This document shows, piece by piece, positions 30,660 to 47,411 of a stretch of DNA of 64,000 nucleotides (its first letter is position 1; every line of letters begins with the position of its first letter). The translations under genes were made by a program, and so were the position numbers. Under the pieces are notes generated by a model. That model made no database searches. It was not told the DNA's origin and saw only the letters and a list, made by a program, of their open reading frames with translations. Origin of the DNA: Actinomyces timonensis DSM 23838 (lineage in GTDB: Bacteria; Actinomycetota; Actinomycetes; Actinomycetales; Actinomycetaceae); contig NZ_JH806633.1 in NCBI RefSeq assembly GCF_000295095.1, forward strand, positions 62,001 to 126,000. The letters run 5' to 3'.

Positions 30660-32129
30660 ATGGACATCAACGCGTATGTGGGAGCCGTGTGGACCGTCTG
30701 CGATAAGTGGTCCACGGGCTACGGGCAGGGCGATGGGACCGGGGGGAGGTGGGATATCCGCGACGGCGGTGCCGGTGACTGCTCCAGCGTCACGATCTGG
30801 GGCGCCCAGATGGGCGGCTACCCCACGGCCGGCGCGTCGAGCACCCACGACATGATCGACGAGCTGACCAGTGTCGGCTGGTCTCTGGTGCCCGCCGGCT
30901 ACCCCTCGAAGGGCGACATCCTGTGGAAGCCGGGGCACGTGTCCGTGGCCATCGCCGACGGCACCCTGGCCGAGGCCTGGATCAACGAGCTCGGCGAGAT
31001 CGTCGGCGGTGAGCCGGGCGACCAGACCAACCAGGAGACCCGCGTCGTCAATTTCTGGGAGCACCCGTTCACCGGGCAGTGGGAGTGGATCATCCGGCCC
31101 CCGGCCGCCTACCCGGCTGGTGGCTGGTCGATGGAGCTGCCCCTGACCGACGGCGCGGTGCGGCCCCCGGCCCAGCCACGCCGCCCCGGCGGGTCCGTCG
31201 CCGAGGCCGCCGCCTGGCAGGCCTCCCAGACCGCCCCCGCCCCGAGCGCGCCGCAAGGAGCGGATACCCGCACCACTCTGCTCGGAATCGACATCGCCAA
31301 CTACCAGGCCGGCATCGACCTGGCCGCCGTCAACCCCGACTTCGTGATCGTCCAGGTCACCCGGGGCACCACCGGCCTCAACACGCACTGGCACGACCAA
31401 GCCATGCAGGCCTGGAACCAGGGACGCCCCCTCGGCCTCTACCACTACATCCAGGGCGAGGTCAGCGCTGAGGCCGAGGCCGACCTCTTCGCCGCCACGA
31501 TCAGCTCGTGGCTCGGCTACGCGATGATCTGCGTCGACTGGGAGGAGCCGGACAACGCGGCATGGGGCGACGAGGGCTACCTGCGGCGCTTCCTCACCCG
31601 CCTGAGCGAGCGCGTCGACAGCAGGTGGCTCATGCTCTACGCCCCTGCCGATTCCTACCCGTGGGGCGTGGCCACGCAGTTCGACACGGGCCGCTGGGTC
31701 GCCCAGTACGCCGACAGTAAGCCCACCGGGTGGGACGCCGACCCGTGGCACGGCCAGTGGCCGATGAGCGCTCACATCCACCAGTACACCGGCACCGGCC
31801 GCGTCAATGGCTATCCGCGTGACCTGGACCTCGACGTCTTCCACGGCTCCGCCGCCGACTGGCGCCGCTACTACACGACCGATCACACCGACCCCGGCGC
31901 TGGGGCCTCCGGCGCCGCCAACACACAGGAGGACGAATTGTCCGCAGCAACCGACACCGTCAACACGATCAGCTCTCTCCTGCACGACCACCTGGCCCCC
32001 GCCATCGGCCAGATGGCCCGCGAGAGCTTCGCGACCAACGCCCGCACCGAGAAGATGGCCGCCAACATCGCCGCCATGCGCGCATCCATCGAGAAGCTCA
32101 CCGACACCCTGACCAAGAAGGAGGGCTGA
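30660..32129 (+). CDS. Two-domain endolysin (Cys peptidase/amidase + GH25 muramidase)
   Basis: A 489-residue endolysin, ATG 30660. The N-terminal domain (1 to about 160) has a Cys/His pair, GDCSSVTIWGAQMGG (Cys41) and KPGHVSVAIAD (His93), as in NlpC/P60 or CHAP-type peptidases. After a Pro/Ala linker, a GH25 muramidase domain (about 205-425) shows GIDIANYQAGIDLAAV, GLYHYIQG, CVDWEEPDN with catalytic acids and HQYTGTGRV...DLDVFHG. The last 64 residues are a helical segment with a strong internal ribosome site ahead of it. No signal peptide, so export needs the holins. Confidence 0.9.
   Translation: MDINAYVGAVWTVCDKWSTGYGQGDGTGGRWDIRDGGAGDCSSVTIWGAQMGGYPTAGASSTHDMIDELTSVGWSLVPAGYPSKGDILWKPGHVSVAIADGTLAEAWINELGEIVGGEPGDQTNQETRVVNFWEHPFTGQWEWIIRPPAAYPAGGWSMELPLTDGAVRPPAQPRRPGGSVAEAAAWQASQTAPAPSAPQGADTRTTLLGIDIANYQAGIDLAAVNPDFVIVQVTRGTTGLNTHWHDQAMQAWNQGRPLGLYHYIQGEVSAEAEADLFAATISSWLGYAMICVDWEEPDNAAWGDEGYLRRFLTRLSERVDSRWLMLYAPADSYPWGVATQFDTGRWVAQYADSKPTGWDADPWHGQWPMSAHIHQYTGTGRVNGYPRDLDLDVFHGSAADWRRYYTTDHTDPGAGASGAANTQEDELSAATDTVNTISSLLHDHLAPAIGQMARESFATNARTEKMAANIAAMRASIEKLTDTLTKKEG
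31927..31940 (+). promoter_or_regulatory. Internal ribosome site and TTG start within the endolysin gene
   Basis: AGGAGGA at 31927-31933 is followed after 4 nt by in-frame TTG 31938. Initiation there would make a separate 63-residue C-terminal subunit (SAATDTVNTISSLLHDHLA...). The site lies exactly at the hinge after the GH25 domain. Internal starts that make extra C-terminal subunits are known in some endolysins; use here is inferred. Confidence 0.5.
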
Positions 32130-32132
32130 CCC

Positions 32133-32420
32133 ATGGCAGACGCCGCTACCACCCTCGCCACCCCCTTCGCCGTCATCGCCCTGGTGACCTTCGCGAAGGA
32201 CCTGGGCCTGCCCACGAAGTTCGCCGGCGCCCTCGCCGTCGTCTTCGGCATCGGCCTGTCCCTCGCCGACCACTACCTCGCGGGCACCGACGTCTACGGC
32301 GCGATCGTCACCGGGGCGTTCCTCGCCGCCGGCGGCGCCGGCGTCTACGACACCTCCCGCGCCGTCGGCAAGGCTATCGGCGGCGGCGCCACTGGCGAGC
32401 ACGAGGCCCCCGCCACCTGA
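32133..32420 (+). CDS. Holin
   Basis: A 95-residue protein with hydrophobic segments at about residues 10-45 and 52-72 (ALVTFAKDLGLPTKFAGALAVVFGIGLSLADHYL; GAIVTGAFLAAGGAGVY) and a short hydrophilic tail. Starts four bases after the endolysin stop. Size, topology and position fit a phage holin that permeabilises the membrane for endolysin release. Confidence 0.8.
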   Translation: MADAATTLATPFAVIALVTFAKDLGLPTKFAGALAVVFGIGLSLADHYLAGTDVYGAIVTGAFLAAGGAGVYDTSRAVGKAIGGGATGEHEAPAT

Positions 32421-33009: not shown

Positions 33010-33384
33010 ATGGCGCTCGGCCGCATCCAGGGGAAGTTCATCCTCCCCGACAACACGGGGGTAGCGACCTCCGTCCGAATCACCCCGACCCGGCTCCTGG
33101 AATCCACCCCGCTGGGCGTCGTCGTCTCAACGGCGACCTGCATGCTGACCGACGGCGCCCTCGACGTCGAGGTCGTGCCGGGCACCTACCGGCTGGAGCT
33201 GCGCATCCCCGGCTCGGAGGAGCTGGCGATGACCGTGACCGTCCCCGACGGGGGCACCGTCAACATCGCGAGCGCCCTGAACCAGCCGCCCCCGTCCCCG
33301 CAGCCCCCATCGCCGGGCGGCGGCGGGGCATCCCCCGGCGCAAACATCCGTGACAACGGCGACGGCACCCTCACCCTCGGCTGA
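33010..33384 (+). CDS. Small beta-sandwich protein before the tail spike
   Basis: A 124-residue protein, ATG 33010 with AAAGGGG upstream. Residues 1-95 look like a transthyretin-like beta sandwich (RIQGKFILPDNTGVATSVRITPTRLL...LDVEVVPGTYRLELRIPGSEE), followed by a Pro/Gly linker and NGDGTLTLG. Such modules occur in phage appendage proteins. It probably belongs to the receptor-binding assembly. Confidence 0.6.
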   Translation: MALGRIQGKFILPDNTGVATSVRITPTRLLESTPLGVVVSTATCMLTDGALDVEVVPGTYRLELRIPGSEELAMTVTVPDGGTVNIASALNQPPPSPQPPSPGGGGASPGANIRDNGDGTLTLG

Positions 33385-33398
33385 CCAGGAGAACCCCC

Positions 33399-36215
33399 AT
33401 GGCATTCACCCTCTACTCCAAGGCCGGGGCGGACGCCGCCATCAAGGCGGCCATCGCCCCACTCGGCGCCCGCGTCAAGAAGATCGAGGACCACCCCGGC
33501 GGCGGCGACGTCGACCTGAGCGGCTACGCCCGCACAAGCGACCTCGACACCAAGGCGAGCATGAAGGACGTCGAGGCGCTGGCCGAGCGCATCGGCGCCG
33601 TCGAGAAGCGCCCCACTGCGCCGGCCAAGGGCGGCCGCGCGTGGTTCTCCGTGTCCTACCCCCGCCCGGACGACGACCTCTCGGCATGGCGCGCGTGGCT
33701 GGCCCCCGCGCCCCTGGGCACCGCTGTCATGGACCACTCCGACCATGACTGGTCCGTCGAGGTCCCCGCCTACGCCAAGGCCGCCAAGGCCGCCAAAGCA
33801 GCAGGCGCCCGCGTCCTGTGGTACGTGCCCACGCACAAGGGCATGGCCGGTGCCCCAGCCAAGTGGGGCGAGGGACGCCCGGACGCCGCCAAATGGAGCC
33901 ACGACGAGATCATCCGCCAACTCGGCTACGCCAGGACCTTCTACGGCGCCGACGTCTTCGACGGCGTCTTCCTCGACGAGGTCTCCTCCGGACTCGACTC
34001 CCACGCCGAGCGCGTCCCCTGGTACACCGAGCTCATCACCAAGATCCGTGAGCGCTTCGGGGCTGGCTTCTACGTCTTCGGCAATCCCGGTGTGGCGGTC
34101 TCCGACGCCATGCTGGACGCCGGGTTCGACGGCCTGTGCACCTTCGAGGACACGGCCGTGGAGTACCTGAAGGCGAGCGGGGAGCGCAAGGCGTGGCTGC
34201 GGGTCACTCCTGCGATGGTGTCCACCGGTGTGGACATCGTCCACATGGTCCGTGACGTCACCGCCGGCAACGTCCGGGCTGTCTATGAGCGGGCCGAGGC
34301 CGAGGGGCCCGATGGGCTGTTCCTCACGGACCGTGGGCTCACTCCCGGGGCGGATCCGCTCGGCGTGCCCGCCTCGTCCCCCTACGCGGCGCCCCCGGCC
34401 GCGTTCGTCACGGCTCCGCTGAGCGCGTGGGCCGCCAGGATGCTGCCCACCTACTGGGCCGCCCAGGCGGGGGGCGAGACGGCGCCGACAGTGCTCGTGG
34501 GATCCCTTGAGGGCGGCAAGGTCTACGATTCCAAGACGATCCGCCTCGACGGTGGTACCGCGTCCGTCATCGCCACCCCGACGGACACGTGGCGCGGTGA
34601 CGTGTCCACTCGGGTGTTCGAGGTGCCCGGCGGCAGGGACCTCGTCCTGGGGCTGCACGTGGTGCATACCGGGGCGGTTCCCGCAAGCCTTCAGGTGAAG
34701 GTGTCCTATGGGACCGCGAGTGAGCAGCCTCGCGCCGTGTGGACCAAGGGCGGCTCGTTCACTGTGGACCCGACGGGGGAGGCGGGTAAGGACCTGTCCC
34801 TGGTGATCCCGGCGTCGGACACGCAGGGCAACACGCATGCCCGCGTGGATCTGCGGTTCAACGGGACCCGGTGGGAGCCGGGCAAGGGGTCCGTCAGTGG
34901 CGTCACCGTCACTGTGCCCGGGGACAAGGCTCCTGAGGCTGATCTGAGCGCGTTCGCGAAGAAGGACGAGGTCGCCGCTGAGGCGCAGAAGGCCGCGCAG
35001 CAGGAGGTGCGGTCGGCGGTTCAGGGACTGGCCACGAAGCAGGAGCTGAGCGGGCTCATGTCGCGTGAGGCCGTCGAGGCCTACGTGCGCGAGGCGATCG
35101 CGCAGGCCCTGAAGGTGGCGCCGGGGGCTCCCGAGGGCGATCTCCTCGTCCCCAAGCCCGACCCCGGCTGGAACAACCAGGCGCCGTACCTGGCGAAGTT
35201 CCGGGCTGGTGAGGGCAAGACCTCGACGATGCCGATCACGATCCTGGGCGACTCCTGGTCCGGCGGCAACGTCACCGAGCGCGGCGGCGCCAACAAGACG
35301 TCGGAGCGGTGGGACGCGATCGCGAAGCGGGACCTGAACAATTTCGCGTTCCAGAACCAGGCGATCAGTGGCCAGCTGACGAGTGATTTCCTGATCTACT
35401 CGGGTGTTCACCCGTTCATCGTGTCCTCGATCGACGGGGACCAGATCCCGGCCGGCAAGAACGTCGAGAAGCGGGTCACCCTGTCGAGCCCGCCGCTCGA
35501 CGTCATGAACGGCAAGCTGCTCCGCAACAACGTGAAGGATGTCAACACGTACATCACGTACTGGCAGGTCACCCTGGACGGTGTGCCCGGGTACATGCGG
35601 CTTCGCTGGGACCAGGCGCAGGGCAAGAACTACTTCGTGTTCGCCAGGAACACCGATGGGCAGGCTCACCCCCTGCCGCCCGGGACGTACCGGTGCTCGA
35701 CGCAGATCGAGTCCACGGTGACCAAGGGCGCCCAGTTCATCATCGAGCTGGGCATCAACGACCTCTTCCAGCACTACGGCGACGCCCAGTTCGTCGAGAA
35801 GTACATGCAGAATCTGCGGGACATCATCTCTCGGCTGGGGACCGATTACGCGGGCGCCCAGCCGAGCCACCTGATGGTCCTGACCATCCCGCCGATGAGC
35901 GGCGAGAACCGGGACGCGCCGCGCCGCAAGATGATGGACAAGGCCAACGCCGCGCTCGTCAACGAGTTCGGGCCGATGGTCCTGGACATCTCCAGCTACC
36001 TCACGAGCGAGCAGGCCCTTGTCGACGCCGGACTGCCTGTCACCAGCGGGGATCGGGAAGACCTGGCGCAGCGGTCCCTGCCGAGGTCCCTGATGGGCGA
36101 CGTCTGGCAGAAGCCCGGCACGTTCGACGCCACGCACATGAACGCGGCCGGCCACAAGGTCCTGGGCGAGTTCATCGCCCGGGAGATCAAACGCCGGGGG
36201 TGGGTTCAAGGCTGA
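33399..36215 (+). CDS. Tail spike/fibre with Spherulin4-like and SGNH hydrolase domains
   Basis: A 938-residue protein. A short trimerisation-like N-terminus (1-75) is followed by a TIM-barrel domain (about 80-305) resembling spherulation-specific family 4 / GH114-type enzymes: VLWYVPTHKGM, DVFDGVFLDEVSSG (about 186-199), VFGNPGVAVSDAML, LCTFEDTAVEYL. A beta-sandwich region and a helical stretch (to about 570) lead to an SGNH hydrolase domain (about 605-938): ILGDSWSGG with the Ser near 618, ELGINDLF, and GTFDATHMNAAGH (Asp/His near 909-912). It could both cleave and deacetylate a host surface glycan. Preceded by CAGGAG. Confidence 0.8.
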   Translation: MAFTLYSKAGADAAIKAAIAPLGARVKKIEDHPGGGDVDLSGYARTSDLDTKASMKDVEALAERIGAVEKRPTAPAKGGRAWFSVSYPRPDDDLSAWRAWLAPAPLGTAVMDHSDHDWSVEVPAYAKAAKAAKAAGARVLWYVPTHKGMAGAPAKWGEGRPDAAKWSHDEIIRQLGYARTFYGADVFDGVFLDEVSSGLDSHAERVPWYTELITKIRERFGAGFYVFGNPGVAVSDAMLDAGFDGLCTFEDTAVEYLKASGERKAWLRVTPAMVSTGVDIVHMVRDVTAGNVRAVYERAEAEGPDGLFLTDRGLTPGADPLGVPASSPYAAPPAAFVTAPLSAWAARMLPTYWAAQAGGETAPTVLVGSLEGGKVYDSKTIRLDGGTASVIATPTDTWRGDVSTRVFEVPGGRDLVLGLHVVHTGAVPASLQVKVSYGTASEQPRAVWTKGGSFTVDPTGEAGKDLSLVIPASDTQGNTHARVDLRFNGTRWEPGKGSVSGVTVTVPGDKAPEADLSAFAKKDEVAAEAQKAAQQEVRSAVQGLATKQELSGLMSREAVEAYVREAIAQALKVAPGAPEGDLLVPKPDPGWNNQAPYLAKFRAGEGKTSTMPITILGDSWSGGNVTERGGANKTSERWDAIAKRDLNNFAFQNQAISGQLTSDFLIYSGVHPFIVSSIDGDQIPAGKNVEKRVTLSSPPLDVMNGKLLRNNVKDVNTYITYWQVTLDGVPGYMRLRWDQAQGKNYFVFARNTDGQAHPLPPGTYRCSTQIESTVTKGAQFIIELGINDLFQHYGDAQFVEKYMQNLRDIISRLGTDYAGAQPSHLMVLTIPPMSGENRDAPRRKMMDKANAALVNEFGPMVLDISSYLTSEQALVDAGLPVTSGDREDLAQRSLPRSLMGDVWQKPGTFDATHMNAAGHKVLGEFIAREIKRRGWVQG

Positions 36216-36249
36216 CCCGCCTTCGCCCGCGCCGGCCGTCTCCACGACC

Positions 36250-37386
36250 ATGGTGGGGGCTGCCGGCGACGGCAGGACCGATGACACAGCAGCGCTCCAG
36301 GCCGCCTTCGGGCGCCTGGAGCGCTCTGGTGGGGGCACCCTCCACCTCGACCCAGGGCGCGTCTACCGCATCGATGGGTGGGTCCAGGGCATCGGCTCCG
36401 GGATCACCATCGAGGGCCACGGCGCCACCATCACGCGGGGACCGACGTCCGGCGGCATCCTCTTCGCCTCCAAGGCCGAGAACAACCGGAGGATCCCGGA
36501 CGGCGGAGAGCGCTTCACCGTCCGGGACCTGAGGATCGTGGGGGACTACGCCAGCGGGAAGGGCCTGTGCGTCGCCTCCCTGCACCACGCCCGGGACATC
36601 GCCTTCGAGCGGTGCATCTTCGAGCAGGTCGCCGGCGGCGGCGGGCACGTCGTCGACGCCGTCGCCGTCGACGGACTGCGGTTCACCGACTGCGAGTGGC
36701 GCGGCCGCCTCGTCGTCGGCGACGGCGCCCTCCAGGAGAACATCCAGGTCGGCGCCTCGCTCCAGGGGACGCTCTCCCACAACCAGGCCACGGGCTACGA
36801 CGGCGTCGCGTGCTCACGCGTCATCGTCGAGGACTGCCGCTTCCTGCCGCTCACGGTCGGAGGACGCACCTACCCAGCGCCGAACATCATCGGCAACCAC
36901 GACAAGCTGGAGCACGGCGAGCACTGGGACGTGACCATCCGGGGCTGCCGCGTCGTCGACCCCCACGAGAACAAGGGGCTCTACGACACGTCCGTGATCA
37001 AGCTGCGAGGCATCAAGGGCTTGACCGTCCAGGGCTGTGAGTTCGTCTCCACCACGGGGGCGGACACGATCCTCATCCACGCCTCCGGGCGTGGGACGGG
37101 CATCCCCGCCGACGGGGACCTGAACGCGGCGCAGGACTGGGGCCACGAGGTCCCCATCGACCCACTGCGATGCCAGGACGTGACGATCAGCGACAACCGC
37201 ATCACCGGGTTCAGCCTGCCCGGGGGGCGCGCCTACATGGAGATCGCGGGCGCGGCCGCCGCCCCGGCCGAGCGCGTCACCGTATCGGGGACGCGCCTCA
37301 CGCGCGGGCCCGGTGACGCGGGGGACCTCGTCAAGATGGCGAGTGCCCACGTCACTGTCTCCGGGACCGAGGAGACCAGGGCCTGA
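36250..37386 (+). CDS. Pectate-lyase-like beta-helix tail protein
   Basis: A 378-residue right-handed beta-helix protein. It begins with the classical motif of phage spikes, MVGAAGDGRTDDTAALQAAFGRL, then regularly spaced coils (HGATITRG, VRDLRIVGDY, IAFERCIFEQV, LRFTDCEWRG, VIVEDCRFLP, VTIRGCRVVD, LTVQGCEF, VTISDNRITGF). Likely a polysaccharide depolymerase or adhesin. No ribosome site precedes the ATG, and the frame is open with Pro-rich sequence back to the stop of the upstream spike, so it may be translated as a +1-frame extension of that protein. Confidence 0.75.
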   Translation: MVGAAGDGRTDDTAALQAAFGRLERSGGGTLHLDPGRVYRIDGWVQGIGSGITIEGHGATITRGPTSGGILFASKAENNRRIPDGGERFTVRDLRIVGDYASGKGLCVASLHHARDIAFERCIFEQVAGGGGHVVDAVAVDGLRFTDCEWRGRLVVGDGALQENIQVGASLQGTLSHNQATGYDGVACSRVIVEDCRFLPLTVGGRTYPAPNIIGNHDKLEHGEHWDVTIRGCRVVDPHENKGLYDTSVIKLRGIKGLTVQGCEFVSTTGADTILIHASGRGTGIPADGDLNAAQDWGHEVPIDPLRCQDVTISDNRITGFSLPGGRAYMEIAGAAAAPAERVTVSGTRLTRGPGDAGDLVKMASAHVTVSGTEETRA

Positions 37387-38504: not shown

Positions 38505-38543
38505 ATTCCGCAGGTTCCCGGTTCGAGTCCGGGTGGGGGCACC
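38505..38543 (+). other. attR: 3' fragment of a tRNA gene
   Basis: The sequence ends with a canonical tRNA 3' half: T-stem CCCGG (38517-38521), loop TTCGAGT, CCGGG (38529-38533), acceptor strand TGGGGGC, discriminator A and CC (38541-38543). No matching GCCCCCA 5' half, D-arm or anticodon arm is found at the required distance upstream. A 3' tRNA piece where phage sequence stops and host genes start is the usual scar of integration into a tRNA gene. The parent tRNA must begin GCCCCCA (Leu or Arg type is likely). Confidence 0.75.
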
Positions 38544-47036: not shown

Positions 47037-47404
47037 GGGGATGATCGGTTTCGACGACGGTCATGGGTTCAGGAGAAGCGGGCCGAGGATGCGCAGTCAT
47101 CTCGTCAACGCTCTGCGCGAACCTATAGGTGCCGATAACACTCGCACCGACTTCGCCCTCGCCGCCTGAGCGAGCCTCGAAGTCCGTCAGCCCGGGGATC
47201 GCTTCCGCCCCGGTTCCTGGCGTCATCTAGGGAGCCACTGCTGAGGAACCGTGTCGGTAGGTTCCTCGGGACTCCTCATCGACTGAGCCCGTCGGCGTCC
47301 TTGCTCGCGTGAGACGCCGGGGCTGAGAAACTCAAAAGCGAGCTGCGCCCGGAGAAGTCCTGTTGCATGCCCGTCGGACCGGGGTTCGATTCCCCGCATC
47401 TCCA
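47037..47404 (+). ncRNA. ssrA: tmRNA (ssrA)
   Basis: The 5' end GGGGATGATCGGTTTCGAC and the 3' end GGGGTTCGATTCCCCGCATCTCC-A fold into the tRNA-like domain: acceptor GGGGATG pairs with CATCTCC, and the T-arm has a 4-5-bp stem. The tag frame is at 47131-47169, ADNTRTDFALAA then TGA. CCA is not encoded. Length about 368 nt is normal. It works with the SmpB encoded just upstream. Confidence 0.96.
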
Positions 47405-47411
47405 CTCACCT

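What the first reader, a model, noticed from the sequence alone, without database searches (positions are those of the whole stretch)
33399..37386. Receptor-binding cassette with three distinct carbohydrate-active folds
Spherulin4/GH114-like barrel, SGNH esterase and beta-helix lyase-like domains are encoded side by side after the lysis genes. Together they could hydrolyse, deacetylate and bind a host surface polysaccharide or coaggregation glycan. A Spherulin4-like domain in a phage tail protein is uncommon as far as I know.
Basis: partly seen in the sequence, partly recalled or inferred. Interest (0 to 1): 0.7.

Follow-up and report, generated by a model that had tools for sequence, protein, structure and literature searches.

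The report
Prophage tail fibre with two sugar-enzymes
A virus resident in a bacterial genome encodes a tail fibre that appears to carry two enzymes for trimming surface sugars, one of them from a sugar-cutting family best known from fungi.

Summary
ORF938 (33399-36215) carries a Spherulin4 domain (PF12138, 4.8e-10) and a C-terminal SGNH/GDSL esterase domain; ORF378 (36250-37386) is a beta-helix of tail-spike type. They lie at the right end of a ~41-kb prophage bounded by a 37-bp repeat at a tRNA-Arg gene.

Relatives point to a virion role: Rothia phage Spartoi has an unfused Spherulin4 gene in its tail region; a same-genus prophage has a GDPD enzyme in the same slot; 16 IMG/VR contigs encode Spherulin4. 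A signal-like N-terminus is seen in 1 of 17 phage and 49 of 53 cellular proteins.

Best reading: a receptor-binding fibre that hydrolyses a HexNAc/GalNAc-type glycan and removes O-acetyl groups. Virion presence, activity and substrate are unproven; the host lacks PelF/PelG.

The parts
33399..36215 (+). ORF938: putative receptor-binding tail fibre with GH135-like and SGNH domains
   Evidence: Pfam and PHROG tail-fibre matches; ribosome-binding site AGGAG
33399..33629 (+). N-terminal part (residues 1-77), predicted attachment/helical part
   Evidence: read by eye; no significant match to the G042 collagen-like protein (14-residue similarity, E 14)
33630..34388 (+). Spherulin4/GH135-like barrel (residues 78-330); aligned active-site residues D193/E194 at 33975-33980 and E250 at 34146-34148
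34389..34943 (+). unassigned region (residues 331-515), possibly a beta-sandwich binding domain
   Evidence: no curated-level Pfam match; nature is a guess by eye
34944..35159 (+). presumed coiled-coil shaft (residues 516-587)
   Evidence: read by eye only
35160..36212 (+). SGNH/GDSL esterase domain (residues 588-938): S619 at 35253-35255, D910 at 36126-36128, H913 at 36135-36137
36250..37386 (+). ORF378: beta-helix, tail-spike type, without anchor and without a recognisable ribosome-binding site
33010..33384 (+). small PEGA-like protein, candidate carrier for the fibre
   Evidence: relatives in G042 (4.3e-7) and G087 (8.1e-4) and Spartoi gp20 (8e-5)
30660..32129 (+). endolysin with GH25 domain
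32133..32420 (+). holin
   Evidence: phrog_1299, 3.5e-13
38507..38543 (+). right copy of the 37-bp attachment repeat, prophage end
   Evidence: left copy overlaps tRNA-Arg

Best explanation
ORF938 is a receptor-binding tail fibre of a temperate phage, held to the virion through its N-terminus and probably the small protein encoded just upstream. Its GH135-like barrel hydrolyses a HexNAc (likely GalNAc-containing) polymer of the host surface or matrix, and its C-terminal SGNH domain removes O-acetyl groups from the same or a nearby glycan; together they let the phage work through the glycan and anchor. ORF378 is a neighbouring beta-helix spike or binding part, if it is made. Shown by computation: folds, conserved catalytic residues, prophage setting, a different enzyme in the same slot of a relative. 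Inferred: presence in the virion, catalysis, joint action, substrate.
For: GH135-like fold and residues; SGNH residues and fold; PHROG tail-fibre match 4e-28 over the SGNH part; intact-looking prophage; Spartoi gp21 in the tail region; G042 slot with GDPD; structural neighbours in 7 of 10 phage loci scanned; no signal-like N-terminus in ORF938 and in 16 of 17 other phage proteins; SGNH fibres shown to be esterases elsewhere (passages of PMC13123978 and PMC9569702).
Against: No virion proteomics. The fibre lies after the lysis genes and next to the attachment site, where non-virion cargo genes also sit. No close relative of the whole protein was found. One phage Spherulin4 protein (Rctr41k) looks exported. 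The SGNH model is only moderate and Foldseek gave no match at E <= 0.001. Host lacks PelF and PelG.
Confidence: 0.7

Rival explanations
1. Lysogenic-conversion (moron) genes: ORF938 and ORF378 are expressed from the prophage and change the lysogen's own surface or biofilm rather than sitting in the virion.
For: Position between the lysis genes and the attachment site; Rctr41k shows that exported phage-borne Spherulin4 exists.
Against: ORF938 has no hydrophobic N-terminus (1.45 against a threshold of 1.8); tail-fibre PHROG match; Spartoi and VA460 place their Spherulin4 genes among tail/lysis genes.
Confidence: 0.13
2. Lytic accessory enzymes: released with the endolysin at lysis to loosen wall or matrix glycan, not part of the tail.
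For: Adjacent to endolysin and holin; in VA460 the Spherulin4 gene lies between holin and lysin.
Against: Tail-fibre type SGNH match; metagenomic relatives beside tail, baseplate and tape-measure genes.
Confidence: 0.08
3. Binding only: the barrel and the SGNH domain are retained as lectin-like receptor binders without catalysis.
For: Neither activity was tested; specificity loops are unusual, e.g. an insertion modelled with low confidence.
Against: All aligned catalytic residues are kept in both domains.
Confidence: 0.07
4. A sporulation/stress auxiliary gene of the lysogen, as proposed for viral spherulation-specific proteins.
For: Proposed for other viruses in PMC8269230 (section 8 read).
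Against: Here the domain is a GH135-like glycosidase by fold and residues within a tail-fibre protein. The Atacama proteins themselves were not examined.
Confidence: 0.02

Closest known systems
GH135, Sph3 of Aspergillus (PDB 5c5g, 5d6t)
   Different: 18% identity; phage protein fused to an SGNH domain, no signal-like N-terminus; substrate unknown
Rothia phage Spartoi gp20-gp21
   Same: Carrier-like gene followed by a Spherulin4 gene in the tail region
   Different: Spherulin4 is a separate 362-aa protein; an SGNH gene was not supported by Pfam there
SGNH tail deacetylases (G7C gp63.1, Possum gp66, Klebsiella prophage fibres)
   Same: SGNH domain in a tail fibre (passages of PMC13123978 and PMC9569702)
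   Different: In the passages seen no GH135 barrel in the same protein; 'spherul' and 'GH135' occur 0 times in PMC13123978
Brevibacterium phage AGM tailspike (AGM7 gp21)
   Same: Beta-helix, 28% identity over 81% of ORF378
   Different: AGM7 gp21 has an N-terminal part of over 100 residues before the helix; ORF378 as called has none

Membership tests
GH135 (Spherulin4, PF12138) | Sequence match above the curated cut-off | tested here: met
   39.8 bits against 30.2
GH135 (Spherulin4, PF12138) | Barrel fold closest to Sph3 | tested here: met
GH135 (Spherulin4, PF12138) | Active-site acidic residues | tested here: met
   D193, E194, E250 invariant in 37 of 37 rows of A6, some rows found by patterns containing DE; aligned with the Sph3 residues by profile
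GH135 (Spherulin4, PF12138) | Hydrolysis of an alpha-GalNAc polymer | not testable with these tools
   needs an assay
GH114 | Closer to GH114 than to other galactosaminidase families | tested here: inconclusive
   no GH114 chain among the 50 rows and no GH114 family, but absence from these lists excludes nothing; Sph3 stands clearly first
SGNH/GDSL hydrolase | Conserved blocks with Ser, Asp and His | tested here: met
   S619, D910, H913; D and H in 11 of 11 rows, GDS in the 7 rows that reach it; GDS and His 5 of 5, Asp 4 of 5 in A7
SGNH/GDSL hydrolase | SGNH fold | tested here: met
Tail fibre / receptor-binding protein | Present in the virion | not testable with these tools
   inferred from context and relatives only
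Beta-helix tail spike (ORF378) | Right-handed beta-helix of tail-spike type | tested here: met
   PHROG tail spike 1.9e-31
Beta-helix tail spike (ORF378) | N-terminal virion anchor | tested here: inconclusive
   none in the ORF as called; its frame is open upstream to 36142
Polysaccharide lyase (ORF378) | Identifiable lyase active site | tested here: inconclusive
   PDB sequence matches cover only the first ~50 residues; no site was found and no structure was predicted

The most novel reading that the evidence does not exclude
GH135-type endo-galactosaminidase barrels are a recurrent, uncatalogued class of phage tail depolymerase, swapped among unrelated tail adaptors and aimed at GalNAc-rich surface or matrix glycans; viral 'spherulation' genes read as sporulation or stress genes would then be receptor-binding enzymes. 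ORF938 would be a form in which the hydrolase is fused to an O-acetylesterase.
Probability: 0.45. Interest if true: 0.65.

Novelty: new variant of a known kind. Interest (0 to 1): 0.5.

Why it matters
Tail depolymerases are known largely as beta-helix spikes and SGNH esterases (passages of PMC13123978). A GH135-like barrel in the tail would add a glycosidase family aimed, by analogy, at GalNAc polymers such as galactosaminogalactan and Pel, which build biofilm matrices. It predicts that phages carrying it recognise such glycans, gives a source of matrix-cutting enzymes, and offers another explanation for viral 'spherulation' genes reported as auxiliary genes. At E <= 0.001 no PHROG family covered the Spherulin4 segment in ORF938 or in 10 of 10 other phage proteins scanned, so annotation that relies on that library would miss it.

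Tried and rejected
Pel as target: PelF (PF11997) and PelG (PF16933) gave no match in the host genome, so a canonical Pel polymer of this host is unlikely. Close relatives of ORF938: none in viral contigs or genome contigs with the single protein; none in viral contigs with Spartoi gp21, with ORF378 or with the SGNH part alone; in the genus 1 of 49 genomes, the own one; in the family 1 of 213, the own one. PF12138 in the genus: 1 of 49, the own genome. DNA near-matches of window 10000-34000 among phages: 3 records with pieces of 48-54 bp. NCBIfam: 0 families for 5 proteins at E <= 0.01. GH114 chains are not in the 50 rows; this excludes nothing.

Results against or limiting my reading. Three same-family prophage regions were fetched; only G042 is used for the slot argument; G038 and G079 were read by eye only, not scanned, and count neither way. 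The G042 endolysin and holin were recognised by eye. The N-terminal likeness between ORF938 and the G042 collagen-like protein is not significant (E 14). Spartoi gp24 looked SGNH-like to me but Pfam did not support it. L015 looks by eye as if it had a beta-helix, unsupported by Pfam; of 9 phage Spherulin4 ORFs scanned there 1 (L008) has a beta-helix in the same polypeptide. PF25692 (phage depolymerase C-terminal domain) matched L008 and L009 below its cut-off. Neighbours: 7 of 10 scanned are structural, 3 had no match; one neighbour per locus was chosen by me. The IMG/VR loci were found with patterns that contain the DE motif, so its conservation there is partly by selection. End of ORF938: of 12 SGNH relatives with a readable stop, 9 end within 9 residues of the same aromatic (Trp) position and 3 continue (L098, L100, L102); 2 run off their contigs (L102 has the record length of phage CN1A).

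Papers: spherulin + phage, 6 papers; GH135 + phage, 6 (for PMC13233415 the match was to GH13 subfamily text); spherulation + virus, 6; galactosaminidase + phage + tail, 6; mixed terms, 12 of 1,213 listed; 'spherulation-specific family 4', 5; SGNH tail fibres, 8; GH135 Sph3 galactosaminogalactan, 11. From titles and abstracts listed, PMC8269230 is the one I took to concern viral Spherulin4. Of it passages and section 8 were read; of PMC12054363, PMC13123978, PMC9569702 and PMC13233415 passages; the rest were seen in listings only. PMC12054363 prints Asp196/Glu222 for Sph3; the aligned aspartate lies 56 residues before the glutamate, which fits 166, the number I recall. Sph3 + E222 found nothing useful.

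Full report
What is there. The window lies in contig C2 of a 2.93-Mb genome. RecT, a replication initiator, large terminase, head protease and major head protein are present, so this is a prophage. A 37-bp repeat links the 3' part of a tRNA-Arg gene upstream of the window (C2:59456) with window 38507-38543, which gives a prophage of about 41 kb ending at 38543; an ORF that looks by eye like a tyrosine integrase lies beside the tRNA. ORF938 holds Spherulin4 and SGNH/GDSL domains above the curated Pfam cut-offs; ORF378 is a beta-helix matching PHROG tail-spike families.

The beta-helix. ORF378 begins at the first turn of the helix, without the N-terminal part seen in Brevibacterium AGM7 gp21. 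Among the 12 late genes whose listed position is a start codon (ORF378 included; two other entries were not start codons and are dropped) it alone has no exact piece of the ribosome-site consensus. Its reading frame is open upstream of its first start codon to 36142, overlapping the end of ORF938 in another frame, and the third-base G+C signal moves from one frame to the other around 36200. Whether it is made by re-initiation, in another way or not at all is open; I describe it only. No catalytic site is claimed and no structure of it was predicted.

Relatives and setting. Rothia phage Spartoi (oral cavity) has, in order, a carrier-like gp20 (8e-5 to the window's 33010-33384 protein, mainly in a Pro-rich stretch), Spherulin4 gp21 (1.7e-35), a collagen-like gp22 (6.5e-6, just below its cut-off) and, further on, lysin. 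Streptococcus phage VA460 has a Spherulin4 protein between holin and lysin, and virus Rctr41k one with a lipoprotein-like start. IMG/VR gave 4 loci and 16; the 4 contigs recur among the 16, so 16 contigs in all. By eye many of their ORFs have a short phage-type N-terminal part before the barrel: L023 matches a PHROG tail-fibre family there at 2.2e-4, and the N-terminus of L011 resembles that of the Brevibacterium AGM7 tailspike (1e-7). In 7 of 10 loci the neighbour scanned is a phage structural gene. L008 has Spherulin4 and a beta-helix in one protein. In a same-genus genome, G042, a carrier relative (4.3e-7) is followed by a collagen-like protein and a GDPD protein (2.1e-13), after genes that look by eye like endolysin and holin: a different enzyme in what appears to be the same slot. 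Six rows of the viral structure library bear the Spherulation-specific family 4 name; Spartoi gp21 and a tip-attachment protein J entry also match.

Compartment test. I scored N-terminal hydropathy in 17 phage and 53 cellular Spherulin4 ORFs (L010, L013, L017 and L018 are the contigs of L006-L009, L019 a fragment like L015, L025 identical to L024, and were left out). A stretch above 1.8, in the first 45 residues or within 120 residues upstream of the domain, is found in 1 of 17 phage proteins (Rctr41k) and 49 of 53 cellular ones; ORF938, not among the 17, has none (1.45). By the first measure alone it is 1 of 17 and 36 of 53, by the second 0 of 17 and 44 of 53. This is a crude measure, not a signal-peptide predictor; it fits export in cells and virion assembly in phages.

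Mechanism. Most likely the fibre brings two activities to the cell surface: the barrel cuts a HexNAc polymer, probably with GalNAc, and the SGNH domain takes off O-acetyl groups; the beta-helix protein may add binding. Catalysis is inferred from residues and fold, action on one glycan from the fusion. The host lacks PelF and PelG, so the target is probably not canonical Pel.

Known and new. Tail esterases and beta-helix spikes are known kinds. In the searches made (open-licence papers only, listings read) I saw no paper that describes Spherulin4/GH135 as a tail enzyme. PMC8269230 reports three viral spherulation-specific family 4 proteins, mean length 1,265 aa, among putative extremotolerance genes and says that their function needs experiment (section 8). 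That size suits tail proteins, but those sequences were not examined here. I file this as a new variant of a known kind.

Noticed in passing
window 36142-36250: The frame of ORF378 is open upstream of its first start codon and overlaps the end of ORF938 in another frame; no ribosome-binding site was found.
   Followed up: partly
L008 7644-10469: A metagenomic phage protein with Spherulin4 and a beta-helix in one 941-aa polypeptide.
   Followed up: partly
L004 6863-8152: Streptococcus thermophilus phage VA460 carries an unannotated Spherulin4 protein between holin and lysin.
   Followed up: partly
L005 3747-5726: Virus Rctr41k has a Spherulin4 protein with a lipoprotein-like start: possibly an exported, non-virion form.
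   Followed up: no
window 34389-34943: Unassigned region between barrel and shaft of ORF938, perhaps a glycan-binding domain; not modelled.
   Followed up: no
window 47037-47405: tmRNA gene about 8.5 kb beyond the prophage end; the attachment site is at tRNA-Arg instead.
   Followed up: yes
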